Positions 2,203-49,429 of a DNA stretch of 64,000 nucleotides are shown piece by piece. Both the position numbers and the translations under genes were made by a program. The notes below the pieces were generated by a model, which was not told the origin of the DNA, ran no database searches, and saw nothing but the letters and a program-made list of their open reading frames with translations. Source of the stretch: Gammaproteobacteria bacterium (GTDB taxonomy: Bacteria; Pseudomonadota; Gammaproteobacteria; Steroidobacterales; Foliamicaceae); NCBI GenBank assembly GCA_009844425.1, contig VYBN01000017.1:208989-272988 (forward strand). The letters run 5' to 3'. Each line of letters starts with the position of its first letter. The stretch's first letter is position 1.

Positions 2203-2302
2203 GCCCTATTCGTTGGCCCTTACTCGCCGGAGCGTTGGAGCCAGGATGGCGGAATCGAGCCAAGGATGGCGCCTCCGGAGAGTAAGGGTCAACGAATAGG
2301 GC
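2203..2302. repeat. Long hairpin element 1: 30-bp arms (28/30 paired), 40-nt loop with two GAGCCA(A)GGATGGCG units
   Basis: gccctattcgttggcccttactcgccggag (2203-2232) versus ctccggagagtaagggtcaacgaatagggc (2273-2302). Confidence 0.9.
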
Positions 2303-2331
2303 GAAATCGAAGCGCCTTCGCCAGCCCGAAA

Positions 2332-2898
2332 TCAGCCGTTCGCTCTTGCCGGAAACGGGCAGCTTTCTTCTTTTTCCACCAAGTCGAAGGTGAACAGCAT
2401 CTTGGCCATGCCGGTCAGGACCGCCATGACCATGCCCAGTTCCATGATTTCGGCTGGGCTGAAATGCCGCTTCAGGCGCTCATGCAGAGCCTCGTCGAGC
2501 GAGCCGGCGGGATTCGTGAGCACCATCTGGTCGGCCAGGGCCAGAGCGGCCCGCTCGCGTTCGGAGAACGGGCCGCTTTCGTATTCGTCTAGCCGGTCAA
2601 TCTGCTCCTGCTTGACCCCCGCCGCGAGCGCGTCCGGGCGGTTGCCCTGGTTGCAGAAGCGGCAGCCGTGGGTGGTCGACAGGCGCAGGCGGGCCAGTTC
2701 CTTGATGACCCGCTCCACGCGCCCGCCGTTGAACAGGCGCTCGTAGAACTCCCCGTACCAGTCGTACAGCTCCGGAGCATGCGCCATGATCTCGAACCAC
2801 GTGGCGTCGCCACGCAGCGCCATCGAGCGCTCCCATCCCTGCCGGATGCGCTCCGGCATGGCCTCCGGGGCTACGCGCGGAAGCTGCGGCTGCGGCAT
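2332..2898 (-). CDS. Carboxymuconolactone decarboxylase/AhpD-like family protein
   Basis: HGCRFCNQGN CxxC-type motif and ERAALALADQMVLTNPAGSLDEALHERLKRHFSPAEIMELGMVMA. Confidence 0.8.
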   Translation of the reverse strand: MPQPQLPRVAPEAMPERIRQGWERSMALRGDATWFEIMAHAPELYDWYGEFYERLFNGGRVERVIKELARLRLSTTHGCRFCNQGNRPDALAAGVKQEQIDRLDEYESGPFSERERAALALADQMVLTNPAGSLDEALHERLKRHFSPAEIMELGMVMAVLTGMAKMLFTFDLVEKEESCPFPARANG

Positions 2899-2901
2899 TC
2901 G

Positions 2902-3660
2902 CTACCCGAGCAGGGGAGCCACAAACGCGTGGGCGCCGTGGATCAGGTTGCCCATGGTCGCGGCCGCTTCCGGCGCGCCGGGTTTGAAGATTCCCAGGAA
3001 GGCTTCAACGATCAGACCGGCCCAGATCATGAACACCCACGGGCGCACGCGATGGATGCTGCGGCGCAAGGCGATGTCCTGCTCCTCGGTAATCGAGCCC
3101 TGACTCAGCGCCCGGATGCCGGCGATAAACCCGGGAAGGAAGATGCGGATCATGACGCCGCACAGGACCATGAACGCAAAGACGATCAGCTTCGGTGCAA
3201 GCCAGGGCGCGTTGTCCAGCCGCCCGGTGGAAACCGACCACCAAACGGAAACCACGATCGCGGCGATCAGGAACCAGCGGAACCACAGGTCCAGCTTGGT
3301 GAGCATCGGCATGAAACTGGCGTTGTGCTTGAAGTGCATGACCAGCAGCACCGTGAACCAGACCGGGCCCAGCACGACGATCATCGCGTATTGCCACGGG
3401 GGATGAGACACCCCTACGTATTCCGAAAGAATGCCTCCCACGGTGAGCATCATGCTCAGGCACAGGCGCGGCAGCAGGTCGATCCACATCATGATGCGCG
3501 ACGCCATGAACCGTTGGTCCGGGCTGTACGAGCGATTGAGGATCATGCGCGTGGAATAAAACACGCCGATGTCGCCGCCCAGCCAGTAGGCAAACAGCAC
3601 CAGGTGAAGAATCAGCCAGATAGTGTGACCGAGATCGCCTTCAGCTCCAGTCATAAACAT
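2902..3660 (-). CDS. Multi-pass integral membrane protein (DUF2269-like), paralogue of 48548..49213
   Basis: Shared HLVLFxYWLGxDxGV...MWIDLxPRxCL motifs between the two. Confidence 0.65.
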   Translation of the reverse strand: MFMTGAEGDLGHTIWLILHLVLFAYWLGGDIGVFYSTRMILNRSYSPDQRFMASRIMMWIDLLPRLCLSMMLTVGGILSEYVGVSHPPWQYAMIVVLGPVWFTVLLVMHFKHNASFMPMLTKLDLWFRWFLIAAIVVSVWWSVSTGRLDNAPWLAPKLIVFAFMVLCGVMIRIFLPGFIAGIRALSQGSITEEQDIALRRSIHRVRPWVFMIWAGLIVEAFLGIFKPGAPEAAATMGNLIHGAHAFVAPLLG

Positions 3661-3931
3661 TCCCCTCCGTTAATCCGGCTCATAGTCTAACCCCCGTTCC
3701 ACACGGTGGCCTACAGCCCATCACCGGATGGGGAGGAAAACGCGGCGCTGTTCCGGGGCACTTGATGAATTTGATGAGCCAACGCCGCCGTGAACTTGCT
3801 GCGGAAACTCTCAATGCGCCTTGCGGGGATTGACTTATCATAATTGGCACAATGCTCAGCAACCATTGAAAGAGCCGATCCCTCATATTCTGTCCCTGCC
3901 CGCAGCGCAAACTTGAATCGCGCACCCACCC

Positions 3932-5839
3932 ATGAGTTTTCTTGACACGCCATTCGCCATCGCAGCCGAGTTCGGCGCATGGCTCGTAGAAGGTATCCTT
4001 TGGACGGCACGATTGATCACCGGCGGACAAGCGGCGCCAGGAATCATATCCGCAGGACTGCTTTTCCTGTTGGCGGTCCTGTCGGTCTGGCATGTGCTCG
4101 CAACAAGGAATTTCTGTAGAGCGGCGAATTGGCTTGCGGACATCCTGAAACCGGCAAGCGTTGATGCGGGTGAAAAGAGGGTTACAGCACTACGCCTTTT
4201 CAAAATAGAAGAGAGGATTCGCGAAGCTCACCACGGCATCCACTACACACGACTGAAGACTGCTTGGGAAGAGTTCAGGGAAACGACGATCGAACCGGAT
4301 GATGATCATTCGCCATTGCGAAATACGGAAAGACCGTCGGTGTTCTTCGCGCGCGAAGAACTTGGCCTGGAAAGCGGAATATGGAGACAGATTCCCGCCT
4401 TGTTCGTCTCCGTAGGATTGTTCCTGACTTTTCTTGGCCTGGTCGCGGCGCTGGATCAAACCAGCGAAATTCTTCGCACATCGGGGGGTGCTGCTAGCGA
4501 AGGGCTGAGAACCTTACTGAACGTGGCCAGCGCCAAGTTCATCATGTCGTTGACCGGATTGTTGTGCTCCATCCTCTTTACGTTGGTCTTGAGATGGAGA
4601 GCCAACGCCACCAATGGAGTGCTGCACGATCTCTGCGCGGAGTTAGAGCGAGGTTGCCAGTACGTGAGCGAACAGTGGCTGGGCCACGAAAGGCTCACCC
4701 AGGCAAAAGAACAAACGGCGCATCTGCAAACACTGAGCACAGAACTTGTTGCTCAAATTGCGCGTCCCTTAAGGGAAATGCCGACGGCCCTCCGCGAGTC
4801 AATTGCAGAAGCCATGGCGCCGGCGATGGAACGAGTCGCGGCAACCACTGGTGAAGGCATTGAGTCACTGGCCGGAAATGTTAGCGGCCAGCTGGCAGGC
4901 GGTGTTCGTGACGCGGTAACGGAAATGAACGAGGCGGTTGGACAAGTTGCATCCCAACTCCAGGCAGTGGCTCAGCGGCTGGACGAGTCATCTAGCGAAA
5001 TGGGCGGGCAGGTGAGTGCTGCTGTGGAGGCTCTGTCCAATCAAATCAACACCCTTGGGGCTGCTATGGCGGCGTCTTCCGAAACCGCTACACAAACTTT
5101 GAACGACGGGTCAGAGGCGCTGATTGAACAAATGAATGAGGCGCTTCAGGCAATCCGGGCCGAAACGACAGCGGGGGCGCAAGGAATTGACCAAGCAAGC
5201 GCCCGAATGGCCGACGCCATTGGCAACGCCGCATCCACCACACAGCAGAATCTCTTGCAGCCCATGAACGTCTTGCTTGAGCAGGTGCAGACGCTGACCT
5301 CTCAGGTAGAAGCTGCGGCCGAACGATTCGGACAATATGCCGAAGCCTTGCAAGGCGGAATCGGTGTGGCGCGTTCGGCCAGCGAAGAACTGGGCCAATC
5401 CGCCCAACACTTGGCAGCGGCGGCTAGTCCGGTGCGCGGAGCGGCTGACCGGATCGAATCGGCAACTCGCTCGATGACGCAAAATGTCAACAAAACCGCC
5501 AGCACGATGCTAAATAGCGCGCGAGAAACGAGCCGTCAGACGGAAGCCGTTCTACGGGAGACAAGAAACGCTATAACTGCTTCGCAGACTGCGGCGACGA
5601 AATCGCTTGATTCTCTCCATGCGGCTGTAAAGGAGTTTCAGCGTGTTCTGGAGAATTACGACAAGATAGACGGGCAACTTGGTGACGCCTTTCAGTCAAT
5701 CGAAGGTAGCGTGCATGCCAATATTGAAGAAATCAGCAATTTCAACAGGAAGTTGAATGATGAATTCGGCCGCGCTCTGAGGCAATTGGAGACGGTCATC
5801 GCGCAGGCCGAACCATTTGAGCCCCGGCAAGAGACTTGA
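3932..5839 (+). CDS. zorA: ZorA-like MotA/TolQ/ExbB-family protein with long coiled-coil tail
   Basis: N-terminal TM helices, MotA/ExbB-like core (IMSLTGLLCSILFTLVLRW), long helical tail, operon context with zorB/C/D. Confidence 0.85.
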   Translation: MSFLDTPFAIAAEFGAWLVEGILWTARLITGGQAAPGIISAGLLFLLAVLSVWHVLATRNFCRAANWLADILKPASVDAGEKRVTALRLFKIEERIREAHHGIHYTRLKTAWEEFRETTIEPDDDHSPLRNTERPSVFFAREELGLESGIWRQIPALFVSVGLFLTFLGLVAALDQTSEILRTSGGAASEGLRTLLNVASAKFIMSLTGLLCSILFTLVLRWRANATNGVLHDLCAELERGCQYVSEQWLGHERLTQAKEQTAHLQTLSTELVAQIARPLREMPTALRESIAEAMAPAMERVAATTGEGIESLAGNVSGQLAGGVRDAVTEMNEAVGQVASQLQAVAQRLDESSSEMGGQVSAAVEALSNQINTLGAAMAASSETATQTLNDGSEALIEQMNEALQAIRAETTAGAQGIDQASARMADAIGNAASTTQQNLLQPMNVLLEQVQTLTSQVEAAAERFGQYAEALQGGIGVARSASEELGQSAQHLAAAASPVRGAADRIESATRSMTQNVNKTASTMLNSARETSRQTEAVLRETRNAITASQTAATKSLDSLHAAVKEFQRVLENYDKIDGQLGDAFQSIEGSVHANIEEISNFNRKLNDEFGRALRQLETVIAQAEPFEPRQET

Positions 5840-6675
5840 GCGCAATGGCTATCCGCTCCACGAGAACCCGCGCGCGCTCAGAAGAAGGCGAATCGGTTTT
5901 CGTCTCGATGACAGACCTGACTGTTTCGTTTCTTTTCATCATTCTTATTCTCCTGGCTTTCTTTGCCAAGAAGGTGGAAATGGAAGAAACCACGCTTGCG
6001 ACGTACCTTGAGCGCATTGCGTCTGAACGCGTGGAATTGCTCGATAAACTGAAGGACGAACTCAGCCGGAATCTGCCGGGCATTCAGGTGACAGTCGACG
6101 TTAAGCACGGGGTCATTCGATTCCGTGCCGAGGAGCTTTTCGCCTCCGGATCATGGGAAATCAGACCCGGAAGCCTGGCCTACAGGATGTCGCACGCCGT
6201 TGGAGATGCGCTTGCCGACACGCTGCCCTGCTACACGCTGACGCCACCCGCCGACATTCAGGTCGTGGATTGTCCCGACGTGGTCGCCGCCATCGAGACC
6301 ATACAGATTGAGGGTCACACGGACGATGTCCCGGTTAGCGACAGGCGGCGAGCGCAAACAGGGCTGGTTGACAACCGTGATCTTTCGGCGCGACGAGGAG
6401 CGGAAACTCTTCGGGCTGTAACTGACCGCTACCGGCCGGATCTGATGTCCTACCGCAACCGCAAGGGACAGCCTGTCTTGTCGTTCGCCGGCTATGGTGA
6501 GATGCGGCCAATCGAGCCCGGGGATAGCGAGGAAGCGCGTGCTTTCAACCGACGCATCGACATTCGCTTCATACTGGAAACGCCGCAGAACGTGAGCGAG
6601 GTGGAAGAAATCAGGGACCGGTTGATCAGGAATCGCCAGCGGCTACTGCCTTTGCAGGATGGACAGGCGCTGTGA
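5836..6675 (+). CDS. zorB: ZorB-like MotB/OmpA-family protein (TTG start at 5836 or ATG at 5845)
   Basis: Single TM with MTDLTVSFLFIILILLAFF and OmpA-like domain IEGHTDDVPV...RRIDIRFIL. Confidence 0.88.
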   Translation: MSAMAIRSTRTRARSEEGESVFVSMTDLTVSFLFIILILLAFFAKKVEMEETTLATYLERIASERVELLDKLKDELSRNLPGIQVTVDVKHGVIRFRAEELFASGSWEIRPGSLAYRMSHAVGDALADTLPCYTLTPPADIQVVDCPDVVAAIETIQIEGHTDDVPVSDRRRAQTGLVDNRDLSARRGAETLRAVTDRYRPDLMSYRNRKGQPVLSFAGYGEMRPIEPGDSEEARAFNRRIDIRFILETPQNVSEVEEIRDRLIRNRQRLLPLQDGQAL

Positions 6676-8042
6676 CTTCCTTGTCTGAACTGCTGCGCAG
6701 CTCTGGCTCTTTCCGGTTGCCGAGTTGGACAGGTAATCCGCAGCGGGTGATTCGCGCCGCGGCGAGCATCAGGCGCCGTTGGCCACACGCGGAATCCGAA
6801 GTGTCTGTCAGTGACCCCGAAAAGTTGGCGAAGGAAATGGATCGGCGGCGTAAGAGCGGCGAGTGGTCGGACTTTTATTGGAAAGACGCGACACAAACAG
6901 CACTGGCCTTTGCTGGAAGTGACTTATGGGAACGGCGCAGATATCGTAAGTTGCTGAATCTGCTGTTGGATCAGATCGGACCCAATGGCACGGACGGAAA
7001 TCGGGCGTACATCCGCGCCCTGTTTCGAAAGTATTTGGCGACATTTCAGAGTGGTAGCAGGCTGACGGTCAGATTGGCCGAGAAGTTGCAGAGCGAAGAA
7101 AATTGGCGTGAAACCGGCTTACCGATTGAGTCGCTGATCAAGGATTGGCATGTTTTCGAGGTTAAGGACGCCCCCAGATGGATCGCAAACCGTATGAGGG
7201 AGCACAAGTCTCCCTTTACCGCGCTGCGAAACGCCGGTATGGAAGCGCCTCATGGCGCCGGACTCATGCAAGAAGCCCACAGGAATTATGTGGATTTGAT
7301 CAAACAGGAAATGAGGCGGGGTATTGACACAGGCATCATGAAATTGCTGGACTGGATCAGCCCTCCGGAGCATGAAAAATCGCTAGACAAAGGTGCTGAA
7401 CTTGCAATTGACGCGCTCCTGGAGCCCTGGACACGTAAAGAACCCGATTCGGCAATCAAGGAACTCATTACGGCGCGTCTGGTTGCAGGCTACGGTGACC
7501 CGCGTCTGACCCAGGCTGGGGCCTGGTCACGGTGTTCGGCTACAGCCCGGAAGGTTATTTTCAGGTGGTTAATTGGCGACACAATCAAAGCATTTTTCAA
7601 GGTCATTTCACAGGTGGTCGAATCGCATATGTGGGCGGATCGCAGGGACCTCTGGCTTGATTTGCACGGGCAGGGCCAAATTACAGAAGGATGGTTTGCG
7701 CTAAGCGATGCGGGCGTGCGTTACGCTGATCGGCTTGCGCGAGAACCGAGTAACAACGAACTGCAGCACGCCTTGCGGGCGTACGCCAGAAACGTATCCT
7801 GCAATAGTCAGGATCGTCAAAAGTGCCTGCTAATCATGAAGGTCAACGACCGGTGGGTGGTGGAGGGGTCACACAGCTTCAAGACTCATGTGTTTCCGAG
7901 AACGGGCGAAGCGCGCGTCACGCCTTACGAAGATTTCTATACTTGCGAGCAATTCAGGGAAATGACCGGACCAGGTGAACCTGAACGCTTTGTTCATCAT
8001 GCCAACTGGCGGTACAGTGTATTCAGCGCCCTGATGACGTGA
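6672..8042 (+). CDS. zorC: ZorC-like protein (EH-signature family)
   Basis: Position between zorB and zorD with 4-nt overlaps; size and C-terminal WRYSVFSALMT. Confidence 0.75.
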   Translation: MTSLSELLRSSGSFRLPSWTGNPQRVIRAAASIRRRWPHAESEVSVSDPEKLAKEMDRRRKSGEWSDFYWKDATQTALAFAGSDLWERRRYRKLLNLLLDQIGPNGTDGNRAYIRALFRKYLATFQSGSRLTVRLAEKLQSEENWRETGLPIESLIKDWHVFEVKDAPRWIANRMREHKSPFTALRNAGMEAPHGAGLMQEAHRNYVDLIKQEMRRGIDTGIMKLLDWISPPEHEKSLDKGAELAIDALLEPWTRKEPDSAIKELITARLVAGYGDPRLTQAGAWSRCSATARKVIFRWLIGDTIKAFFKVISQVVESHMWADRRDLWLDLHGQGQITEGWFALSDAGVRYADRLAREPSNNELQHALRAYARNVSCNSQDRQKCLLIMKVNDRWVVEGSHSFKTHVFPRTGEARVTPYEDFYTCEQFREMTGPGEPERFVHHANWRYSVFSALMT

Positions 8043-11000
8043 TGCCGATCCAATACACACGCGACGGCAAACAAGTAGTCTTCACCAACGCCAACCAGCG
8101 CGTCGATGACTGGGTTGCAGGAAGCGCGGCGCGCTGCGGCGCCTTGGCAGCGTTCCGCGGATTTGCCGATGAACATCCCGGAACCGTCCTATTCGAGCCT
8201 GACCGCATTATTGCCGGACAAGCAGCGATAGCCTCGCTTTCCATCAGCCAGGCTCGAGCAATGAGCCTGCCGGATCGCCCACCCTATGTTCTTGCGACAG
8301 ACACGAGCGGGGTCATTGGATCGCGCAATTTCAAGCTGACGACGCGATGGCTCGCCGGTAACTTCCCAATTGCGACACAGCGCGACGGTGCCTTCCTACA
8401 AACCGGCGACGGAACCTTTCTGATTCCTGAACCATTGTTTTCCGCCCTTGAACTGGCGGATAGCTTTGAATCAGGTGACCATGATCTTCCGGGCCATTGG
8501 GCCGCGCTGTCGGAGTTTCGAAGCCTGCTCGGGAGTGTAGCGGCAGGCGAAACCGAGCAAATGGAAATGAGTGCCTTCCTGGAAGGTTTGCGGATTTATA
8601 CCGGGACTGCTCTGTCACTGGCCCTGCGCACAGACGGCGAAGACGTCACTTTTGATCCGGTGCTCTTCCACCCGGATAAAGTGCGGGAGGCGCGGGAAGA
8701 AAAACGGCCTCTTACCGAACAAGATGGATTGCTTCAAGGTCCCCAGCTTCACAGCTTCCAGAATCACGCCAGGACGGGTTTTCGCGCGTTTGACGACGCC
8801 AAGAAAAGTTACTTGTTGGACCACAACACCTATCTGATTATCGACGACGACCTTGAAACGGTGTTGCAGATAGTTCGCGAGAAACAGCAGGCCGAGGCGC
8901 CAGAGCGCAAGGCTTTCGCCACCAATCCGCGCGCGGGGATAGCGGAACGGATACAGAAAGAGAAGGAGATCGGCGAAGAAGAAAGTGAGGCTCTGGCGGA
9001 GGTGTTATTGGTTGAGACTCCGGAGTACGCCGACCGCGCGATCGGGATTGGCTTATGGAAGAAGCCCGAATTTGCGTTCTTCACACCACAACCCGAAGTC
9101 TGGCTACCCGAAACGTTCTCTCTGAATCTTGGCGGCGTATGGGTTCGTTTGGATCGGAACACGGTAGCGGAGCTCAGGGGAAAGGTTGACGATGCAATTG
9201 AAGCCGGGCACACATTGGTCGAATATGGCGGACAGCAAATTCCGGTCACGGACGAGGTGCGCCAGAAACTGGCCGAAGTTATTGGGGTGGAGCAACCTCA
9301 AGATCGGCCGGAAACGGGGTCTGGCCGCAAGAAACAGGAGACCCAAGATTCCATCGTAGTCCAGGTTCACGAGAATTTCGTGGAAGAGAACTGGCCACCG
9401 GAAATTCCAACACGCGAGATTCGCACGCCAACCGATCAGGCCCCAAGGGTTCGCACCCAATTACTCTCTCATCAGAAGGAAGCGTTGCAATGGCAAATTG
9501 AAGCTTGGCGATCCGGTCTTCCGGGAATCTTGAACGCCGACGATCAAGGTCTCGGCAAGACCCTTCAAACCTTGGCATTTCTGGCCTGGCTGCAAGCGGA
9601 TATGGACCAGACTCGGCTTTCGCGGCGCAAGCCCTTCCTGATTGTTGCGCCACGCGGATTGCTCCGAACTTGGGAAAGTGAGGTGTCCCATCATTTGACC
9701 GGTATCGGTCTTGGTGCCCGCGTCCGCGTGTACGGCCCCGATTTGAAAGCACGTCGAATCCCGCATGTGGCTGGCCTGGATACGGACGACGGTCGTCCAC
9801 GGCTCGACTTCAAGGACATTCAGTCGGCCATAAGAAAAGGAAATGGCCACAAGTTCTGGCTCCTGACGACTTACGAAACCCTAAGTAACTATCAGCACAG
9901 CTTTCGTCAGATCAGCTTTTCGGTGATTGTCTTCGACGAGATTCAGAAAATAAAAAACGCACAGACTCGCATTGCGCTCGCGGCACGCTCCGTGAAGGGC
10001 GACTTTCGGATTGGCCTGACGGGAACCCCGATCGAAAACCAGGTTGCCGACCTTTGGGCGATCATGGATGCGGTTGCGCCCCGCAGCCTGGGGACCCTGA
10101 AGGACTTTGCTGAGCGTTACAGGCAGATAACCCCGCACGGGATGGAGGAATTACATGCCAGGCTTTTTAGGGACAGGCGCAATGGCAACAGGTCTTACCC
10201 ACCAGTCGCCCAGCGGAACTTGAAAGAGAACGAAATTACGGGGTTGCCACGTAAAGACTACCGCCTCTATCCCTCAACAATGCCTGATATTCAAGCAACA
10301 GTGTATGAAAAGGCTCGTGAACATCTTGCTGCCGGAGAACAGGGGGCGGCGCTGAAGATGCTGCATCATCTTCGAAGCGTTTCTTTGCATCCTCACCCGC
10401 CGGAAACAGCAGAAATGGATATGGAGGATTATTTCACCTGCTCGGCGCGCTTTGCGGGTATGCACGATATTCTCATACGCATCCAGGAATTGGGCGAGCG
10501 GGTACTGATATTCACAGAGCACCGGCAAATGCAGCAGTTCCTGGCGCAATGGCTCAGATCAGAATTTCAGCTTGGCAAGGTGCCGATCGTCAATGGAGCG
10601 ACATCGATCTCCAAGCGCCAGAGTTACGTCCTAGGATTTCAAGAGCATCTTAAGAATGATTGCGGCTTCCGTGTGATGATTCTCTCTCCAAGGGTTGCGG
10701 GAGTCGGGCTGACCCTGACTGCCGCGACCCATGTAATTCACCTCAGCCGCTGGTGGAACTCCGCGGTCGAAGAACAATGCAATGATCGCATCTACAGGAT
10801 CGGACAGAAGAAAGACGTTACCGTGCATCTGCCGCTCGCCGTGCATCCCATCCACCGCGAGCGTTCATTCGATTGCGTGCTGAACAAGTTGATGAAACGC
10901 AAATCCTCACTGGCGCACGCGGCCTTATGGCCTCCGTCCAATAAAGACTATGACATCAGCGAGTTGATGGCCGGACTCAGCGGTGGGGAATCGACCGATC

Positions 11001-11386
11001 CTTCCGAAATCGACAATCTTGACTGGGCGCGATTTGAGGACTGGGTCATGACGCGCGCCCGGGATAGCGGCGATTGGGAAGTTGCCAGGACGCCAGCTTC
11101 CGGTGATGGCGGCGCCGACGCAGTGCTGCGCCATCGCCGACGGCGTCATGATGCCGCCCTCGTTCAAGTGAAGCACACTGAGAACCGCCAACGCATACTG
11201 GATCGATCTGCGATTTTCGAAATCATGCACGCAAGAGGGCGATATGACGTAAGCAATCCACAACTCGCAGTTGTTACCAATGCCCAGGGCTTTACGCTCG
11301 CTGCCCAACACCTTGCGCGTGAAAAGAGCGTTGCGCTGGTGGACCGTGACCGTCTTGGACTATGGCCAGCCCATGTTCTTGCTTAG
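8039..11386 (+). CDS. zorD: ZorD-like SNF2/DEAD-like helicase with C-terminal Mrr-like nuclease domain
   Basis: Walker A DDQGLGKTLQTL, DEIQKIKN, SNF2 C-lobe RIYRIGQKKDVTVHLPLA; C-terminal GDGGADAVL...ALVQVKHT resembles the Mrr D/QxK core. Confidence 0.87.
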   Translation: MMPIQYTRDGKQVVFTNANQRVDDWVAGSAARCGALAAFRGFADEHPGTVLFEPDRIIAGQAAIASLSISQARAMSLPDRPPYVLATDTSGVIGSRNFKLTTRWLAGNFPIATQRDGAFLQTGDGTFLIPEPLFSALELADSFESGDHDLPGHWAALSEFRSLLGSVAAGETEQMEMSAFLEGLRIYTGTALSLALRTDGEDVTFDPVLFHPDKVREAREEKRPLTEQDGLLQGPQLHSFQNHARTGFRAFDDAKKSYLLDHNTYLIIDDDLETVLQIVREKQQAEAPERKAFATNPRAGIAERIQKEKEIGEEESEALAEVLLVETPEYADRAIGIGLWKKPEFAFFTPQPEVWLPETFSLNLGGVWVRLDRNTVAELRGKVDDAIEAGHTLVEYGGQQIPVTDEVRQKLAEVIGVEQPQDRPETGSGRKKQETQDSIVVQVHENFVEENWPPEIPTREIRTPTDQAPRVRTQLLSHQKEALQWQIEAWRSGLPGILNADDQGLGKTLQTLAFLAWLQADMDQTRLSRRKPFLIVAPRGLLRTWESEVSHHLTGIGLGARVRVYGPDLKARRIPHVAGLDTDDGRPRLDFKDIQSAIRKGNGHKFWLLTTYETLSNYQHSFRQISFSVIVFDEIQKIKNAQTRIALAARSVKGDFRIGLTGTPIENQVADLWAIMDAVAPRSLGTLKDFAERYRQITPHGMEELHARLFRDRRNGNRSYPPVAQRNLKENEITGLPRKDYRLYPSTMPDIQATVYEKAREHLAAGEQGAALKMLHHLRSVSLHPHPPETAEMDMEDYFTCSARFAGMHDILIRIQELGERVLIFTEHRQMQQFLAQWLRSEFQLGKVPIVNGATSISKRQSYVLGFQEHLKNDCGFRVMILSPRVAGVGLTLTAATHVIHLSRWWNSAVEEQCNDRIYRIGQKKDVTVHLPLAVHPIHRERSFDCVLNKLMKRKSSLAHAALWPPSNKDYDISELMAGLSGGESTDPSEIDNLDWARFEDWVMTRARDSGDWEVARTPASGDGGADAVLRHRRRRHDAALVQVKHTENRQRILDRSAIFEIMHARGRYDVSNPQLAVVTNAQGFTLAAQHLAREKSVALVDRDRLGLWPAHVLA

Positions 11387-11467
11387 CCCGAACATTCAGA
11401 ATCGATTGGATACTCAGGCCTCCCGCTATTATGTCCATCATTCCGACGAGCGATTTTTTCTAAGGTT

Positions 11468-13190: not shown

Positions 13191-13199
13191 GGTAGCGGT

Positions 13200-39230: not shown

Positions 39231-40474
<1,244 letters not shown>

Positions 40475-40475
<1 letters not shown>

Positions 40476-41518
40476 TGACCCGCAACGCCAAGACCGTGGT
40501 TGCCGGGGTAGCCGCGGCGGCCCTCCTCGCGCTTGCCGGGCTGTATTCCGCACGGCTGGCGCTGGAAAACCCTCTCGCTGCCGGATCCGCCGATCGGACC
40601 GTGATCGTCGAACCGGGCGACTCGCTGAATGCGGTGGCCGCGCGGCTTGAGGAACGGATGATCCTGGAGCGGCCGTGGCTGTTCAAGCTGGCGGCCTATG
40701 TGACGGGAAGCTCGGCGCGCATACAGGCAGGCGAATACCGGGTCGGGGCCGGGGACACCCATCGCCAGCTCATCGATCGCATGGTTCGCGGCGAGGTCGT
40801 TCAGCACTACTTCACCATCATCGAAGGGTGGACCGTTGGCGAGCTTCTTCGCGCCCTGCCTGCCGCCAAACCGCTGGTTTCCACCCTGCAGGCGCGCGAC
40901 GCGGAAGACCTGGCCGGAGAACTGGCGCTTGGATATGGACACGCCGAAGGATGGTTCTTCCCGGATACCTACGCTTATACGCGCGGTGAAACCGACGCCG
41001 ATGTGCTTCTGCGGGCCCACGCGCTGATGCAGGACCGATTGCAGGCGGCCTGGGCGGAGCGCGTTGCCGGAATGCCCCTCGAAGATCCCTACGAAGCCCT
41101 GATCCTGGCGTCAATCATCGAGCGCGAGACCGGGATCGACGCCGAGCGCCCCGTCATCGCCGGCGTACTCACACGGCGACTTAAACTGCGCATGCGCCTT
41201 CAGGTGGACCCCACGGTGATCTACGGAATCGGCGAGTCGTACGCCGGCGACATTACCCGCGCCCACTTGCGCGAAGACACGCCCTACAACAGCTATACGC
41301 GATACGGGCTGCCGCCCACGCCCATCTCGCTGCCCGGCGAGCCTTCCCTTCAGGCGGCCGTGCAGCCGCAGCCGGGCAAGTTCCTTTACTACGTGGCTTC
41401 CGCGGACCTCGACGGCAGCCATGTATTCAACGAGACGCTGGACGGACACAACGCCGCGGTCGCGTTGCTCGGGCGCAGCCAGCGCGCTCGCAACGGCGGC
41501 AACGCGCCGGTTGAATGA
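40475..41518 (+). CDS. mltG: Endolytic transglycosylase MltG
   Basis: LASIIERETGIDAERPVIAGVLTRRLKLRMRLQVDPTVIYGIG. Confidence 0.94.
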
Positions 41519-41560
41519 CGCCGTCCGCGACGCGGCTTTGCAGGCTATGCTTGAACCGAT

Positions 41561-42187
41561 ATGAGCCGCGGACGATTCGTAGTTCTGGAAGGGATAGAAG
41601 GCGCCGGCAAGTCCACTCACACCGCCTTCCTGGCCGGCTGGCTCAGGCAAAGGGGCATTGCCGTGGTTGCAGCCCGGGAACCGGGCGGGACCGCGCTGGG
41701 AGAACGGCTCAGAGACATACTGCTGGATCCCGAACTGACCGGCATGCCGCCGCTGGCGGAGTTGCTGCTGATGTTCGCCGCGCGCAGCGCGTCCCTCAAG
41801 GAAGTCATCCTTCCCGCGCTCGACGAGGGTTCGTGGGTGATCTGCGACCGCTTCGTGGACTCGAGTTACGCCTATCAATCGTACGGCCGCGGCGTTTCGC
41901 TGGAGTACGTGGAGGCGCTTGAAAAGCAGGTCCTGGACGGCCTGCGCCCCGATCTCACCATTCTTCTGGATACCCCGGTGCGCCTCGGTCTCTCGCGCAA
42001 GGCCGATCCGCAAGGGGCCGACCGGTTCGAACGCGAGAGCCGGGAGTTCTTCGAGCGGGTGCGCGCCGGGTATCTGGAGCGGGCCGCGCTGGGAGGCGAC
42101 GGTTACCGCATTGTCGATGCGTCGAAGTCGCTGGAGGAAGTGCAAACGGACCTCAGAAACGCGGTTCGTCCGCTGGTCGGACTCTAG
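41561..42187 (+). CDS. tmk: Thymidylate kinase
   Basis: RGRFVVLEGIEGAGKSTHTAFLAGWL, DRFVDSSYAYQ. Confidence 0.96.
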   Translation: MSRGRFVVLEGIEGAGKSTHTAFLAGWLRQRGIAVVAAREPGGTALGERLRDILLDPELTGMPPLAELLLMFAARSASLKEVILPALDEGSWVICDRFVDSSYAYQSYGRGVSLEYVEALEKQVLDGLRPDLTILLDTPVRLGLSRKADPQGADRFERESREFFERVRAGYLERAALGGDGYRIVDASKSLEEVQTDLRNAVRPLVGL

Positions 42188-42191
42188 TGTC

Positions 42192-43151
42192 ATGAGCCGG
42201 ACGGAGCTTCCCTGGCTGGAGCCTCTTGAGGCCGAACTCGCGGCCCAGATCGGTTCGGGCCAACTCGCTCATGCGCTGCTGGTGCACGGCCAGCGCGGCA
42301 CCGGGAAACGGCGCCTTGCCGCATGGCTGGCGCAGGAGTTACTGGGTTCCGACCGACCCGTATGGCCCGCGGAATCCGCTCCGGAGACCACCCTGCACGC
42401 GAATCTTCACCCGGCCGCGCCGGAGGCCGGCAAGTTGCTCTCGGTAGAACGTATCCGGGAGCTGATCGATTTCATGCTCCTGAGCACCTACGGCTCGGGC
42501 GCGCGCATTGCGGCGGTCTGCCCGGCCGAGTCGATGACGCGATCGGCCGCCAACAGCCTGCTCAAGATTCTCGAGGAACCGCGGCCGAACAGCTATATCC
42601 TCCTGGTCGCGGACGATCCGGCGCAATTGCCTGCCACGATCATCAGCCGCTGCCGCCTGCTGCGTTCTCCGGCCGTACCGCGGGACGCGGCGCTTGCCTG
42701 GCTGGCGCAGCAGGAACCGGACGCGAACTGGGACAACGCCTTGCGTCTGGCCGGAGGCGGACCGCTCGCGGCGCGGCAGATTCACGCCGACGGCCTCGAC
42801 GAACGCGCCAGAACGATGAGCGGCCAACTGGCCGGCCTGGAACGGCGGGCATCCACGCCGCTGGAAGTGGCGCGGAGCTGGAAGGACCTGCCGATGCGAT
42901 TCTGTTGCGATTTCCTGTTCCGTTGCGCGTTTCGCCGGATCAGCGACTGGACCGCAAACGAAAATAATGCCTACAAGCAGAGATTTTCGGTATTGTCCCC
43001 GGATTTGCAGGAGGCAATGATCAGGGACGGCTTCGTTCACCTGGACAACGTCATGGATTGCCGCCGCATTGAACGCTTCACGCCGAACGCGGAACTGGCC
43101 GTAACGGTGCTGCTCAAGGACTGGTACGGGGGTTTCGGCACCCAGCGATGA
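42192..43151 (+). CDS. holB: DNA polymerase III delta' subunit
   Basis: HALLVHGQRGTGKRRLAAWLAQ, SANSLLKILEEPRPNSYILLV; internal ATG at 42192. Confidence 0.88.
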   Translation: MSRTELPWLEPLEAELAAQIGSGQLAHALLVHGQRGTGKRRLAAWLAQELLGSDRPVWPAESAPETTLHANLHPAAPEAGKLLSVERIRELIDFMLLSTYGSGARIAAVCPAESMTRSAANSLLKILEEPRPNSYILLVADDPAQLPATIISRCRLLRSPAVPRDAALAWLAQQEPDANWDNALRLAGGGPLAARQIHADGLDERARTMSGQLAGLERRASTPLEVARSWKDLPMRFCCDFLFRCAFRRISDWTANENNAYKQRFSVLSPDLQEAMIRDGFVHLDNVMDCRRIERFTPNAELAVTVLLKDWYGGFGTQR

Positions 43152-43483
43152 GCGTCCCCGGCTTCTACTCCCTGGTCCTGGAGGACGCCGATTCGCTTTC
43201 GGCTGCCTGGCTGCCGTTCCTCGAACCGGGCGGACTGTTCGTTGCGACCCGCCGGGATCATTTCCCGGGAGAAGAAGTCGTGCTCCTGCTGCAACTTCCC
43301 GACGGCGAAAAGCGCAGCGTCGCCGGCAGCATCGCCTGGATAAGCGCGGAAGATCTCTCCGGACAGCCGCCGGGCGCCGGCGTGGCACTCGACGGCGAGG
43401 AAGGGCAGGCGCTGGCGGAAACGATCAGGCGAATCGTGCGCGAAGCACCGTCTCCGGCCGAAGCGCTCCTGGCCCGCTTCTGA
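43148..43483 (+). CDS. PilZ domain protein
   Basis: LPFLEPGGLFVATRRDHFPGEEVVLLLQLPDGEKRSVAGSIAWIS; follows holB. Confidence 0.88.
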   Translation: MSVPGFYSLVLEDADSLSAAWLPFLEPGGLFVATRRDHFPGEEVVLLLQLPDGEKRSVAGSIAWISAEDLSGQPPGAGVALDGEEGQALAETIRRIVREAPSPAEALLARF

Positions 43484-43507
43484 AACGATCGAACAACTGA
43501 CGCTCCT

Positions 43508-43617
43508 CGCGGCGTTCTTGCCAGTGCCTTCCGGGAGTTTGTGAGCCATGGATGGCGGAACAAAGCTCCATGGATGGATTTATGCGTCTCCCGGAAGGCA
43601 CTGGCAAGAACGCCGCG
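43508..43617. repeat. Long hairpin element 2: 30-bp perfect arms, 50-nt loop with GAGCCATGGATGGCG and GCTCCATGGATGGA units
   Basis: 43508-43537 is the exact reverse complement of 43588-43617. Confidence 0.95.
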
Positions 43618-43627
43618 TGCCAGCGCT

Positions 43628-45367
43628 TCAGCGCCAACCGGAGAATCGCACTACGCGCTGAGGTGTTTGCTGGACGCGGCATTCGGGGCGCAGCTTTTCG
43701 GCGCCCAGCAGGTACCAGTAGCGGCGGTGGGCATAGCCCAGACGAATTCCCGAATCGCCGGTGAAACACCAGTTTCGATATTCTTCCGGCGCCAGCAGCA
43801 TCCGGTCGGGAGCTTCTCCGAGCCAGGCCGAAGCATCGAGGATTTCCTGGCGGCGGTCGGCGCGCCGGCGCCCGAAATGGGTGACCGGCCGGTCCACGTG
43901 CAGCATCTGCTGGGCCCGCCAGTCGGCCAGTCCCAGTTCCGTGCCCTCGGGAATTGCCTGAAGAGCCGCGGCCGTTATCGTCTTGCCGGAGCGCCCCTCA
44001 TTGAGCAGCGAGAACGATCCCCAGCCCAGCAGCATCCAGAACAGCACGATGATGCAACCCGTGACCGCGGGCGCCCTGCGGCTGCCGGCGGACAAGAGGC
44101 CCGCCAGACCGGCCGCGCTGGCCACGATCACCAGCGGCACGACTACGGGATGGACCGAATTGATCTCGAGAAGCAGCGCGAGCCGTCCCGGATTCAAAAG
44201 GTTGAACCAGAACGGCGAACCGTCCGAAAGCGACGTAACCGCCGGCTCGTCGGCCGGCGTCACGCCGTACACGCTCAGCATCGAAAAAAGCAGAACCAGC
44301 AGCACGGCCATCATTCCGAACCAGAGCGTCAGGCGGCAGTTCCTGCGCTGCAGGGCGCCAGCGAGGTGCGGGCCGCAGGCAAGCGCCAGCGCCGGAATGA
44401 CCGGCAGGAAATCGGCGGCCCGCTTCGCCTGGCTGACGGAAATGAGAAGCAGGACCGCGGCCGCCCAGACGATGAAGCAGAGCAGGGCGGGGTCGCGCGC
44501 ACGCAGGCCGTCCCCCCAGCCGTAGCGGACCCAGGGAAGCGTCAGCACAAGGGGGAAACAGGCCCAGGGGACGACCTGCAAGACGTAGTACCAGAATGGG
44601 TAGAGGTCGCTCCACGACGCGGGCCCGCGGCCCAGAGGCCAGGCTTCCGGCAAGGCCAGCCTGTAAGCGGCCACGGCCTCGCTGCCGGATCCCCAGAGCA
44701 GGGCCAGCCAGGCCGCCGGGACCGCCGCAAGCACGGCAATGCCCGCCAGCAACCTGAGGTTCCAGCGCGCCGGCCTCAACAGCCAGCCGCGGCGCGCAGC
44801 CCAGAGCCACGGCGCCAGCAGCAGGAGCGGCAACAAGCCGGAAATGTCGATCAGCAATCCCAGCGCACAAGCAAGGCAGCCGAGAACGCAATGGCCCCAG
44901 GCGGGGCCCAGCAGCAGGTGGCGGGACAGCCCGTAAAGGCCTGACGCGATGAAGAAACACAAGACGATGTCGCCGCCGGCGCCGTGTGCCTGCAACGCGA
45001 ACTGCACACAGCCCAGCAGTGCGACCCCGGCCCAGAAACCGGCGGCATCGTCCCAGAGCCGGCGGGCCAGGTCGCAGGTCATCCACAGCATGCCGATGCC
45101 GGCCAGCAGCGAAGGCAGGAGGAACCCGATCCTGATGCCGAACAGCCACTGAAAAACCGCCAGTATCCAAAGGTATAGCGGCCCTTCCTTGACGAACAGT
45201 TCACCTGCGAGCGTGGGCGCCAGCCAATCGCCGGAACTGAGCATTTCCGCGGCGGCGAGCGCGTTTTCCGGCTCGTTGGGCGGCCAGGGATCGCGCAGGC
45301 CGAAACCCGCGGTCAGGATCAGCAGTGCGGCGCCGAACAGGATCAGCGAACGGATCCGGTCTCTCAT
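43628..45367 (-). CDS. ArnT/PMT-like membrane glycosyltransferase
   Basis: GLRDPWPPNEPENALAAAEMLSSGDWLAPTLAGELFVKEGPLYLW; many TM segments. Confidence 0.85.
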   Translation of the reverse strand: MRDRIRSLILFGAALLILTAGFGLRDPWPPNEPENALAAAEMLSSGDWLAPTLAGELFVKEGPLYLWILAVFQWLFGIRIGFLLPSLLAGIGMLWMTCDLARRLWDDAAGFWAGVALLGCVQFALQAHGAGGDIVLCFFIASGLYGLSRHLLLGPAWGHCVLGCLACALGLLIDISGLLPLLLLAPWLWAARRGWLLRPARWNLRLLAGIAVLAAVPAAWLALLWGSGSEAVAAYRLALPEAWPLGRGPASWSDLYPFWYYVLQVVPWACFPLVLTLPWVRYGWGDGLRARDPALLCFIVWAAAVLLLISVSQAKRAADFLPVIPALALACGPHLAGALQRRNCRLTLWFGMMAVLLVLLFSMLSVYGVTPADEPAVTSLSDGSPFWFNLLNPGRLALLLEINSVHPVVVPLVIVASAAGLAGLLSAGSRRAPAVTGCIIVLFWMLLGWGSFSLLNEGRSGKTITAAALQAIPEGTELGLADWRAQQMLHVDRPVTHFGRRRADRRQEILDASAWLGEAPDRMLLAPEEYRNWCFTGDSGIRLGYAHRRYWYLLGAEKLRPECRVQQTPQRVVRFSGWR

Positions 45368-45448
45368 ACCGCAAGTGTATCGCTCCGCAGGCGACACTTA
45401 TAATCCCGTTCGCGACTACTCCCGTCCTGCACCGGCGCCCGGAAGCCT

Positions 45449-46480
45449 ATGACCATACGAACCGATGCACTGATCGTTGGCGCGGGGCCCTGCGGGTTGT
45501 TCCAGGTGTTTGAACTCGGACTACTCGGCATCAACGCGCACCTGGTCGACGCCCTGCGGGAGCCCGGCGGGCAGTGTACGGAACTCTATCCGGACAAGCC
45601 CATCTATGACATTCCGGCCATACCGGTGCTCAACGCCCAGGATCTGGTGGATGCCCTTCTTAAGCAGATCAAACCCTTCAATCCCACCTTTCACCTCGGC
45701 GAGGAGGTAACGGTGGTCCGGCCGCTCGGAGAAGGGGATGGCTTTCACGTCGAAACCGGTGCCGGGACGCGATTTCAGGCAAAAACGCTTTTTCTCGCCG
45801 GCGGCGTGGGCTCGTTTCAACCCCGCAAGCTGCGCCTGGACGGCGCCGAGACCCTGGAAGGCCGGCAGCTTCATTACCGGGTAAAGGATTCCTCGCGTTT
45901 CCGCGGCAGGCGTCTGTTGATACTCGGCGGCGGCGACTCCGCGCTGGACTGGGCGCTGGAATTGAGCGGAACCGCCCAATCGGTGACGCTGGCGCACCGA
46001 CGCGACGAGTACCGCGCTGCGCCGGCGTCGGTGGCGCAGTTGAAAGAGCTGGTTGATCAGGGCAGGGCGCAACTCTACGAGAAGGCCCGCGCTACCCACC
46101 TGCACCTTGCCGGCGAAGACCTCAAGGCGGTCACGATCACGGTTGAGGACGTTGAGAGAGATCCTCTGGAAGTGGATGATTTATTGGTATTTTTCGGATT
46201 GGCGCCTAAGCTGGGCCCGATTGCCGACTGGGGCCTGGACCTGAACCGCAAGACCGTAAACGTGGATCCGGAAAAGTTCCAGACCAACGTGCCCGGAATC
46301 TTCGCCATCGGCGATATCTGCCACTATCCTGGAAAGAAGAAGCTGATCCTGAGCGGTTTTCACGAAGCCGCGCTGGCGGCCTTCGCGGCCAAGGCGATAC
46401 TCACTCCCGGCAAGAAGGTCCATCTGCAGTACACGACCACCAGCCCGATCATGCACAAGCGCCTGGGTTTGTCCGACTGA
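45449..46480 (+). CDS. Thioredoxin-reductase-like ferredoxin/flavodoxin-NADP reductase
   Basis: ALIVGAGPCGLFQVFELGLLGINAHLVDAL, LILGGGDSALDWALEL, GIFAIGDICHYPGKKKLILSGFHEAA. Confidence 0.92.
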   Translation: MTIRTDALIVGAGPCGLFQVFELGLLGINAHLVDALREPGGQCTELYPDKPIYDIPAIPVLNAQDLVDALLKQIKPFNPTFHLGEEVTVVRPLGEGDGFHVETGAGTRFQAKTLFLAGGVGSFQPRKLRLDGAETLEGRQLHYRVKDSSRFRGRRLLILGGGDSALDWALELSGTAQSVTLAHRRDEYRAAPASVAQLKELVDQGRAQLYEKARATHLHLAGEDLKAVTITVEDVERDPLEVDDLLVFFGLAPKLGPIADWGLDLNRKTVNVDPEKFQTNVPGIFAIGDICHYPGKKKLILSGFHEAALAAFAAKAILTPGKKVHLQYTTTSPIMHKRLGLSD

Positions 46481-46485
46481 ACGGC

Positions 46486-47073
46486 CTAATCGGACGGCAT
46501 GGCCGCCAGGACGGCCTCTTCGAACTGCTCCTCGCTGTGTCCGCCCAGTAGCGTCCGGAAGATTGATCCGTCCGGGCCGATCACGTAGTTCGCCGGCATG
46601 ACGCCCGGCCAGAAGGGATCCAGCTCTTCCACCAGCAGATAGTCCTCGAATTCCCCGTTCAGATAGCTGTGCCACTCGGGGAACCGGGTCTCGATGAATT
46701 CCGGCACAAGCCAGGCAGCGTCCGCCTGGTCGTCCAGCGATATCGCCACGAGGGCGAACCGGGACGGGTCCAGCTTCTCCCGAAGATTGATCAGCGCAGG
46801 AATCTCGTGGATACAGGGCCCGCACCAGGTGGCCCAGAAATTGACCAGCACCACCTTGCCACGGTGGCTTTCCAGCAGCGGCAGCAAACCGTCCGCCCGG
46901 ACCCACTCAAGGACGGGTTCATCGCCGCCTGCCGCGGCTTCCGGCGCCTGGTCTTCAGGCCACAGGGCAGGAGAGGCCAGCGCCAGGCTCGCCGCAACCA
47001 ACGCAACGGCATATCGGCGAATGGGTGTATGATCTGGGGTTGTTCGAACAGGGTTCACGGGAGCTAGCCTCAT
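46486..47073 (-). CDS. TlpA/ResA-like thioredoxin-fold protein
   Basis: VVLVNFWATWCGPCIHEIPALINLREKL; ATG at 47073 preferred. Confidence 0.88.
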   Translation of the reverse strand: MRLAPVNPVRTTPDHTPIRRYAVALVAASLALASPALWPEDQAPEAAAGGDEPVLEWVRADGLLPLLESHRGKVVLVNFWATWCGPCIHEIPALINLREKLDPSRFALVAISLDDQADAAWLVPEFIETRFPEWHSYLNGEFEDYLLVEELDPFWPGVMPANYVIGPDGSIFRTLLGGHSEEQFEEAVLAAMPSD

Positions 47074-48463
47074 GTTCAAGAAGGCATACTTTAGCGCATT
47101 GGCGCTTTTGGCCGCGTTTCTCTTCCTGCCGTCCACAGCCTGGACACAAGCCGAGATTCTCTATCAGAACGAACTGGGGTTGCCGGACAGAGCGGCCTTC
47201 AGTCCCGAGATTGCGGTATCCGGCAGCGGCGAAGTATATGTCGTGTTTCTGGACCGGCCCGACCCGACCGCGCCGCCTCCGAAGCGCAAACACGGCGAAC
47301 ACAGCCATCGCTCCTCGGTGGACCTGTGGATCGCGCGTTCCGACGACGGCGGGTCCAGCTTTCAGTCCCCCTCCATCGTCAACCATGAACAGGGCGTGAT
47401 CTGGGGCTTCCAGGTCAGCAAGCCCCGGGTCAACATTGACGACCACGGCACGGTACACATCTTCTATCCGGGCAACGCGCAGTCCAGCGAGACCCGGCTG
47501 GACGTCATCGCCTCGCAATACACGCGCTCGCTGGACAAGGGCGCGACATTCTCCGAGGCCGTTTTGCTGAACTCGCACGTCAAGAAGGACGGGCGGGGGC
47601 TTCTGGGTGAAGAACTTGGCGCGGCGCACGCCTTCGGCACCATGGGTGTGGCGCCGGACGGCACCGTGCACACTTTCTGGCTCGACACCCGCTACATGGG
47701 TGGTCCCAGCATGGGGGCCACGCTGTTTACGGCCTCATCGAAAGACGGCGGAGCGACATTCGGCAACGAGATTGAATTTGCCCGCGACGTGGTCTGTCCC
47801 TGCTGCCAGCTGGTCACCGACTTCGTTGGCGACGAAGCGGTGCTCGTGTCCTACCGGCACGTGTTCGACGACGGCTCCCGCGACAGCGTGGTGTTGCGCT
47901 CCACGGACGACGGGCAAACCTGGCCCGAGCTGGCCCGCTTGCCGATCGATCCCTGGTATATCGGCGGCTGCCCGCTCAAGCCCACCGACATGGCCGTGAA
48001 CGAGAACTACGTGTATTCCGTGGCGTTCTCCGCCGGCCCCGAGCAACAGGGCGTCTGGTTCAGCCGCTCGCGAAACGCCGCCCTCGACTTCGAGGAAGCC
48101 ATACACATGCATCCGGACTCCAAATACAGCGACGCGCCGGTCATCACCGTGACGCCCAGCGGGGTAGTGCGGGTCGTCTGGCATTCGCGCGAGGGCCGCA
48201 AGAGCCCCTACCGGCTGTACATGTCGGAGTCCTACGACCACGGCGAAACCTTTACGGCCCCCTGGGAGTTGCCCACGCCTGAAGAAGGCCAGTCACGCTT
48301 CCCGGTAATGGCCACGGATGCCGACGGGAATTCACACGTGGCCTGGGAGCAGCAGGTGAAGATCAGCGAAATCGTGACGACCGAAGTGCACGTCATGGGC
48401 ATCGCGGCGCCCAGCACAGGCCCCACCACGGTCATCGCCAGCCTGGGCCAGGGCGCCGAATAG
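47072..48463 (+). CDS. Secreted BNR/sialidase-like beta-propeller protein
   Basis: Repeated S.D.G.T.. blocks (RSDDGGSSFQ, SLDKGATFS, SKDGGATFG, STDDGQTWP). Confidence 0.8.
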   Translation: MFKKAYFSALALLAAFLFLPSTAWTQAEILYQNELGLPDRAAFSPEIAVSGSGEVYVVFLDRPDPTAPPPKRKHGEHSHRSSVDLWIARSDDGGSSFQSPSIVNHEQGVIWGFQVSKPRVNIDDHGTVHIFYPGNAQSSETRLDVIASQYTRSLDKGATFSEAVLLNSHVKKDGRGLLGEELGAAHAFGTMGVAPDGTVHTFWLDTRYMGGPSMGATLFTASSKDGGATFGNEIEFARDVVCPCCQLVTDFVGDEAVLVSYRHVFDDGSRDSVVLRSTDDGQTWPELARLPIDPWYIGGCPLKPTDMAVNENYVYSVAFSAGPEQQGVWFSRSRNAALDFEEAIHMHPDSKYSDAPVITVTPSGVVRVVWHSREGRKSPYRLYMSESYDHGETFTAPWELPTPEEGQSRFPVMATDADGNSHVAWEQQVKISEIVTTEVHVMGIAAPSTGPTTVIASLGQGAE

Positions 48464-48547
48464 AAAGCAGCGCTTTCGCAGCTTTGCTCGCGGCTCCAAC
48501 CGCGCCCCAATCAAGCGGGCGCGGCTACATGACGCCTTGACGGGCGG

Positions 48548-49213
48548 CTAGAACGGCTTGGCGAGGCCGAGATAGGCCAGCGCCAGCGACGTACCCCAGA
48601 ACAGGTAGACCACCTTTTTCGATTGCCCGAGCATCGTGGTGAAGATGGCCTCCACCTCGGGTGTCGAGCCTTCGGCTGCCAGTCGCCGGAATCCCGTTCC
48701 GATGTCGGCAACGTAGGACCTGAGCCACAGGCCTAGATATACCAGCACCCCGAACAGCATCACCTTCAAACCCAGCCAGTTGCTGCCGAAGCCGATATCC
48801 ATCACCAGCGATACGGCGCCGACAATCACGAGTGCAGGCGCGACGACCCAGCGGATGCGGTTGTCAATGATGCGAAAAGTGCTCCCGGCGGAAGGGCCCT
48901 TGTTCAGGTAGACCGCCCACGACAGCACCAGCCACGCCAGAAAGGCGATCCAGACCAGCCACAGCCAGGTTCCCGTAATCGGGCTAAGGCCCAGACTGTC
49001 CGCCAGCGTAAGGCCCACCGGAAACATGAGGATCAGGCACGACCGCGGCACCAGGTCGATCCACAACATGGCGGTCAGGAAGCGCCGCCGCTCCTCGATC
49101 GGGAGTTGCGCCTTGCAGATGTAGTGGGTCGTGACATAGACCCCCCAGTCCGGCCCCAGCCAATAGACGAACAGCACCAGGTGCGCGTAAAGAACGAAAG
49201 TGTGGAAGTCCAT
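48548..49213 (-). CDS. Multi-pass membrane protein (DUF2269-like), paralogue of 2902..3660
   Basis: AHLVLFVYWLGPDWGVYVTTHYI...MLWIDLVPRSCLILMFPVGL. Confidence 0.65.
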   Translation of the reverse strand: MDFHTFVLYAHLVLFVYWLGPDWGVYVTTHYICKAQLPIEERRRFLTAMLWIDLVPRSCLILMFPVGLTLADSLGLSPITGTWLWLVWIAFLAWLVLSWAVYLNKGPSAGSTFRIIDNRIRWVVAPALVIVGAVSLVMDIGFGSNWLGLKVMLFGVLVYLGLWLRSYVADIGTGFRRLAAEGSTPEVEAIFTTMLGQSKKVVYLFWGTSLALAYLGLAKPF

Positions 49214-49321
49214 TACTTACCTCATACTTAACATAATATATATTATGCCCAACTTATAGAGGGCAACCGCTGTAGCCGTTCGTCGACCCCCTTCTTCCGG
49301 GCCGGCCTGCATTCGACTAAA

Positions 49322-49429
49322 GGTTCCTCCTGCCCACCTGTTCCGGGAACGTCGGAGGCAGGATGCCGACGCCGAGCCCACAGGGATGTGCTTGCAGGCG
49401 TGTCCCGGAACAGGTGGGCAAGAGGAACC
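49322..49429. repeat. Long hairpin element 3: 27-bp arms (26/27), 54-nt loop with GAGGCAGGATGCC and GAGCCCACAGGGATG units
   Basis: ggttcctcctgcccacctgttccggga (49322-49348) versus tcccggaacaggtgggcaagaggaacc (49403-49429). Confidence 0.93.

What the first reader, a model, noticed from the sequence alone, without database searches (positions are those of the whole stretch)
2203..49429. Three long intergenic hairpins with unrelated arms but a shared GGATG-containing loop architecture
Seen directly: elements at 2203-2302, 43508-43617 and 49322-49429 each have 27-30 bp arms (28/30, 30/30 and 26/27 complementary). The arm sequences are unrelated between copies, yet the loops (40, 50 and 54 nt) share a layout of two units. 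Element 1 has GAGCCAGGATGGCG then GAGCCAAGGATGGCG. Element 2 has GAGCCATGGATGGCG then GCTCCATGGATGGA. Element 3 has GAGGCAGGATGCC then GAGCCCACAGGGATG. Several units are themselves mini-hairpins (GCCA-GGA-TGGC, GGCA-GGA-TGCC). A conserved loop on diverged but internally complementary arms suggests selection on structure, or a copying mechanism that regenerates arms. This does not look like a simple dispersed repeat or an ordinary terminator.
Basis: seen in the sequence. Interest (0 to 1): 0.78.

Follow-up and report, generated by a model that had tools for sequence, protein, structure and literature searches.

The report
Mobile hairpins with twin GGA loops
The three hairpins are copies of a short mobile DNA element, present about 190 times in this genome and in many other gammaproteobacteria; its RNA would hold up two small loops of the kind bound by the global regulator CsrA, and it links three repeat or RNA families that had been described separately.

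Summary
The three hairpins are real and exactly placed. They are not isolated. Covariance models find at least 192 copies in the 3.03-Mb genome, 24-93 in each of eight other genomes of the genus (capped counts), and matches in 47 of 252 sampled Gammaproteobacteria. Nearly every copy has a 28-31 bp arm pair and a loop with two GGA hairpins (CANGGANG, the CsrA/RsmA consensus). Elements 2 and 3 sit where five sister genomes have an empty site, and near-identical whole copies, arms included, lie elsewhere. So this is a miniature mobile element. Arms travel with the copy and diverge by paired changes; they are not regenerated. In arms of 113 elements outside this genome, G-T mismatches number 33 and A-C none, so the GGA strand is the one that folds, whichever way the neighbouring gene points. 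The loop core matches the Yersinia repeat YPAL/RU-2, whose reverse complement is Rfam Ysr224, and resembles TwoAYGGAY (RF01731). No held paper joins these. Best explanation: a YPAL/TwoAYGGAY-type mobile element whose RNA binds CsrA/RsmA. Mobility is shown; CsrA binding is inferred, and csrA presence does not separate genomes with and without the element.

The parts
2203..2302 (+). Element 1 (class A, 40-nt loop); GGA strand is +; lies downstream of the minus-strand CMD-family gene 2332-2898
2240..2250 (+). Element 1, GGA hairpin 1 (GCCAGGATGGC)
   Evidence: read
2259..2270 (+). Element 1, GGA hairpin 2 (GCCAAGGATGGC)
   Evidence: read
43508..43617 (+). Element 2 (class B, 50-nt loop) between convergent genes ending at 43483 (+) and 43628 (-)
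43545..43556 (+). Element 2, GGA hairpin 1 (GCCATGGATGGC) inside the GGA/GGA internal loop
43567..43578 (+). Element 2, GGA hairpin 2 (TCCATGGATGGA)
43488..43625 (.). DNA absent from the orthologous site of G274, G275, G276, G279, G280 (about 136-138 nt insertion; in G276 the empty site lies in the palindrome GCTGAAGCGCTTCAGC); ends uncertain by a few nt
49322..49429 (+). Element 3 (class B variant, 54-nt loop), 6 nt from the end of the minus-strand cyclopropane-synthase-like gene 49435-50661
49357..49367 (+). Element 3, GGA hairpin 1 (GGCAGGATGCC)
   Evidence: read
49379..49390 (+). Element 3, GGA hairpin 2 (CACAGGGATGTG)
   Evidence: read
49261..49438 (.). DNA absent from the orthologous site of G276 and G280 (1 nt between flanks); also no element in G274, G275, G279

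Best explanation
Each hairpin is one copy of a miniature mobile element of the YPAL/TwoAYGGAY kind (about 110 nt of hairpin plus short flanks). Shown: it inserts at the 3' ends of genes, where sister genomes are empty; it carries its own arms; arms and loop hairpins change in paired fashion; the GGA strand is the folded strand; many copies are gained or lost between species that are about 95% identical. Inferred: when the GGA strand is transcribed, the RNA forms a 30-bp rod topped by two hairpins presenting ANGGA 20-26 nt apart, which a CsrA/RsmA dimer clamps. The copies then act as scattered CsrA docking sites or decoys, and the rod acts as a 3'-end barrier in either orientation. The mobilising enzyme is unknown.
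For: At least 192 copies in the genome. Elements 2 and 3 have empty orthologous sites in five sister genomes, with near-identical copies of element 3 elsewhere. Of 73 syntenic places in G279, 40 lack a hairpin. Arm subfamilies. Paired WC-to-WC changes 60 against 53 one-sided in close copies; about 2 expected by my arithmetic. Loop hairpins covary around invariant GGA. G-T against A-C: 45:20 in the genome, 33:0 outside. A(n)GGA at least twice in 169 of 175 loops; CANGGANG absent from the opposite strand. 3'-end siting: 11 of 178 in divergent spacers, p about 2e-10. One csrA gene in the genome. CsrA binding was already proposed for TwoAYGGAY, in silico only (PMC4333381).
Against: Next to tandem genes the GGA strand is antisense slightly more often than sense (61 against 47), so many copies would not put GGA into the neighbouring mRNA. 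csrA is found in 43 of 47 genomes with the element and 172 of 205 without (my count), no clear difference; G196 (98% complete, 9 matches) is not among the genomes listed with csrA. The sRNA recorded for the Yersinia relative (Ysr224) lies on the other strand. No expression or binding data were available.
Confidence: 0.5

Rival explanations
1. A mobile element whose GGA hairpins are recognised, as RNA or single-stranded DNA, by its own mobilising enzyme; the fit to CsrA is convergence. Selection acts for the element, so orientation to host genes does not matter.
For: Fold constraint on the GGA strand in both gene orientations; strict [-][+] arrangement of 21 of 22 tight pairs, as in paired mobile palindromes; mobility; elements in genomes without a csrA hit.
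Against: No enzyme identified; no Y1 transposase (PF01797) in the genome. The loop fits CANGGANG at both sites in 56 of 60 loops of other genera, closer than chance convergence would suggest (loops were pre-selected for two A(n)GGA).
Confidence: 0.3
2. Host-selected bidirectional terminators or mRNA 3'-end protectors; the loop is incidental.
For: Siting 10-50 nt after stop codons, both orientations, very stable rods.
Against: No T-tract; the loop, which a terminator does not need, is the most conserved part; high turnover between species.
Confidence: 0.12
3. One reading: arms rebuilt at each site while the loop is kept (strand switching at the hairpin).
For: 97% perfect pairing with few wobble intermediates; loop inverted between conserved arms at two clear orthologous sites and one complex one; loop class switched while arms stayed at one site.
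Against: Arms travel with copies; empty sites do not contain the arms; one-sided mismatches are about as common as paired changes in recent comparisons, as ordinary compensation would give.
Confidence: 0.05

Closest known systems
YPAL / RU-2 (Yersinia palindromic sequence, De Gregorio et al. 2006, described in PMC2229807 and PMC2759123); Rfam RF02770 Ysr224 is its reverse complement
   Same: Loop core: element 3 and others align to the RU-2 core at 36-43 of 50-54 positions, far above shuffles. Miniature mobile palindrome with filled and empty sites, next to dyad symmetry, expressed together with upstream genes. RF02770 hits several relatives on the C strand, best E 2.7e-6.
   Different: YPAL is one family in Yersinia and Erwinia; here two loop classes and many arm subfamilies, in a different lineage and across the class. 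GGA sites and the folded strand were not noted in the YPAL passages read.
TwoAYGGAY RNA (Rfam RF01731)
   Same: Weakly conserved outer stem, two ANGGA(U/C) hairpins, GA-rich internal loop beside one of them; one gammaproteobacterial relative (L382) scores 45.2 bits, above the 43-bit threshold.
   Different: Window elements are below threshold; hairpin order is swapped; Rfam's type is cis-regulatory, not a mobile repeat.
REP/REPIN elements and ERIC
   Same: Palindromic, intergenic at gene 3' ends, inverted pairs.
   Different: No GTAG or short conserved stem, no RAYT gene found, arms variable.
CsrA/RsmA-binding sRNAs (CsrB, RsmZ)
   Same: Repeated GGA in hairpin loops.
   Different: Not a dedicated multi-site sRNA gene; two sites per copy, about 190 copies.

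Membership tests
TwoAYGGAY (RF01731) | Rfam gathering score | tested here: not met
   Window: no match at gathering; element 2: none at E up to 10. A relative, L382, meets it (45.2 vs 43); L373, L378, L385, L109 are at 31-37 bits.
TwoAYGGAY (RF01731) | Two hairpins with A-Y/N-GGA-Y loops inside a long outer stem | tested here: met
YPAL / RU-2 | Sequence of the inner loop core | tested here: met
   36-43 identities of 50-54, scores 15.5-26.5 against shuffled maxima 4-10
YPAL / RU-2 | Mobility: filled and empty sites | tested here: met
YPAL / RU-2 | Insertion at or next to dyad symmetry, target duplications of 3-26 bp | tested here: inconclusive
   Element 2 site in G276 is a 16-bp palindrome; flanks overlap by 2-4 bp in three genomes; no clear duplication at other sites
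REP / REPIN (RAYT) | Y1 transposase in the genome | tested here: not met
   PF01797: no match
Intrinsic terminator | GC-rich stem followed by a T-tract | tested here: not met
   Flank composition on both sides
CsrA/RsmA target RNA | ANGGA presented in hairpin loops, usually paired | tested here: met
   130 of 175 loops have two hairpin-presented GGA and 42 have one, against 0 and 21 on the opposite strand
CsrA/RsmA target RNA | Binding by CsrA/RsmA | not testable with these tools
   Needs CLIP or gel shift; genome has one csrA; co-occurrence uninformative

The most novel reading that the evidence does not exclude
A class-wide family of RNA-constrained mobile hairpins (a bacterial counterpart of SINEs) that uses CsrA-type GGA hairpins as its conserved core. 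It spreads as, or is regulated through, a CsrA-bound RNA, and scatters hundreds of CsrA docking sites through the genome; TwoAYGGAY, YPAL and Ysr224 would be branches of it.
Probability: 0.2. Interest if true: 0.85.

Novelty: new variant of a known kind. Interest (0 to 1): 0.6.

Why it matters
It joins a gut RNA motif of unknown function (TwoAYGGAY), a Yersinia mobile repeat (YPAL) and a Yersinia sRNA family (Ysr224) into one testable family, and suggests that mobile DNA can scatter CsrA/RsmA sites through genomes. It also explains a widespread but unnamed 3'-end repeat in Marinobacter and many other gammaproteobacteria, and gives a strand test (G-T against A-C) that can be applied to other palindromic repeats.

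Tried and rejected
Rfam at gathering threshold: nothing in the window; microRNA-model hits at lax thresholds are stem matches only. Literature searches by raw motif gave primers and unrelated papers. REP/RAYT: no Y1 transposase. Plasmids and phages as vehicles: no match with one class-B element. csrA co-occurrence as a test of the CsrA idea: uninformative. Arms derived from the target site: rejected. Sense 3'-UTR element with fixed orientation: rejected, orientation to tandem genes is mixed. The original YPAL paper is not held.

Full report
Observation. They fold far better than shuffles.

Copy number. A pattern from the loop occurs 104 times in the genome and never when reversed. Two covariance models were built, class B (50-nt loop, R1) and class A (40-nt loop, R2). 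They give 192 non-redundant elements, 137 B and 55 A; this is a lower bound, since only 150 candidates were scored per model. Arm length is 28-31 bp in 170 of 183 measured copies, with 97% Watson-Crick pairs.

Anatomy. The consensus is an outer rod; a stem (UGUGC/GCCCA in one form) that covaries and encloses a GGA/GGA internal loop; the hairpin GCC-AnGGAU-GGC; and a second hairpin with loop AnGGAY whose stem changes UAC/GUA, CAC/GUG, UCC/GGA, CCC/GGG. In other copies and genera the first hairpin becomes GGCGGC-AGGA-GCCGCC, GGGCCGC-AGGGAT-GCGGCCC and so on, with GGA kept. Two A(n)GGA occur in 169 of 175 loops. CANGGANG, the CsrA/RsmE consensus (my knowledge), occurs at least once in 145 of 175 loops, never on the opposite strand, and in 9 of 175 shuffles. 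The minimum-energy folds of window elements 1 and 2 do not themselves show both GGA hairpins; the hairpin assignment rests on covariation.

Which strand. Arm mismatches that would be G-U pairs in GGA-strand RNA outnumber those that would be G-U on the other strand: 45 to 20 in this genome (p = 0.003), also where the neighbouring genes run the other way (19 to 7), and 33 to 0 in 113 elements from other genomes (p = 2e-10). The GGA strand is the structured strand, as RNA or single-stranded DNA.

Context. Using a home-made gene caller, elements lie mostly 10-50 nt from stop codons: 61 between genes running against the GGA strand, 59 between convergent genes, 47 between genes running with it, and only 11 between divergent genes. 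The sister genome G279 shows the same. In 21 of 22 close pairs the GGA strands point outward. There is no T-tract. About 12 nt of flank on each side are weakly conserved.

Mobility. In G279 (about 95% identical) 40 of 73 syntenic places have no hairpin; some are deletion remnants. For the window itself, element 2 is missing from G274, G275, G276, G279 and G280, where the flanks abut with -4 to +6 nt, in G276 within the palindrome GCTGAAGCGCTTCAGC. Element 3 is missing from the same five. A 119-nt copy 97% identical to element 3 lies elsewhere in G279, and one 94% identical lies elsewhere in this genome. Arms therefore move with the element. The empty-site data are for elements 2 and 3; element 1 was not placed in relatives.

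Arm and loop evolution. Among close paralogues and orthologues, 60 pairs changed on both sides and kept pairing, against 53 changed on one side; about 2 doubles are expected from the per-site rate (my arithmetic). Loops are inverted between conserved arms at C50:109432 and C50:113696, and probably at C25:76561. At C25:95248 the loop class differs from G274 while the arms are orthologous. Strand switching at the hairpin could produce these, but that is inference.

Distribution. All nine genomes of the genus have matches; in the order the presence is patchy; 47 of 252 Gammaproteobacteria match at E up to 1e-4. Of 22 such loci inspected, all but one showed the twin-GGA loop. Many of the named pattern hits with arms are Marinobacter.

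Known relatives. Rfam TwoAYGGAY hits Clostridia loci at up to 132.6 bits, the gammaproteobacterial locus L382 at 45.2 (threshold 43), and others at 30-37. Its CsrA binding was predicted in silico. Rfam Ysr224 is the reverse complement of YPAL/RU-2, differing at two of 107 positions, and the RU-2 core aligns to these loops far above shuffles. YPAL is described as a mobile element next to dyad symmetry, expressed together with upstream genes; Ysr224 is listed as a temperature-responsive sRNA. A search of the held library found no paper that joins these.

Verdict. Mobile, twin-GGA, GGA-strand-constrained element: well supported. YPAL/TwoAYGGAY kinship: supported by sequence and model scores, though window copies miss the Rfam thresholds. 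CsrA docking: likely but untested. csrA co-occurrence gives no support either way (43 of 47 against 172 of 205, counted).

Noticed in passing
RF02770 (Ysr224) and RU-2/YPAL: The Rfam sRNA family Ysr224 is the reverse complement of the mobile repeat YPAL/RU-2 (two differences in 107 nt), so its wide 'sRNA' distribution may reflect a repeat.
   Followed up: yes
L394, orthologous site of element 2 in G278: A different 189-nt insert with its own long inverted repeat (CTAGCAGCCCGTGGCAGAA...TTCTGCCACGGGCTGCTAG) occupies the same gene junction.
   Followed up: no
L067, L048 (Lachnospiraceae, Ruminiclostridium): TwoAYGGAY matches also occur as close [-][+] pairs there, as in this genome.
   Followed up: partly
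G000 C43:22283, C30:153233, C35:7324, C48:126092: Some copies have the first GGA hairpin replaced by a longer GC hairpin without GGA (e.g. cagtgagcggcgatgccccggcgcgaacagc), shared between loci.
   Followed up: no
L105 (gammaproteobacterium AS07pgkLD_56), 982-1407: Three related hairpins within 0.5 kb, two of them with identical arms, loops with a GGA hairpin of the same kind.
   Followed up: no
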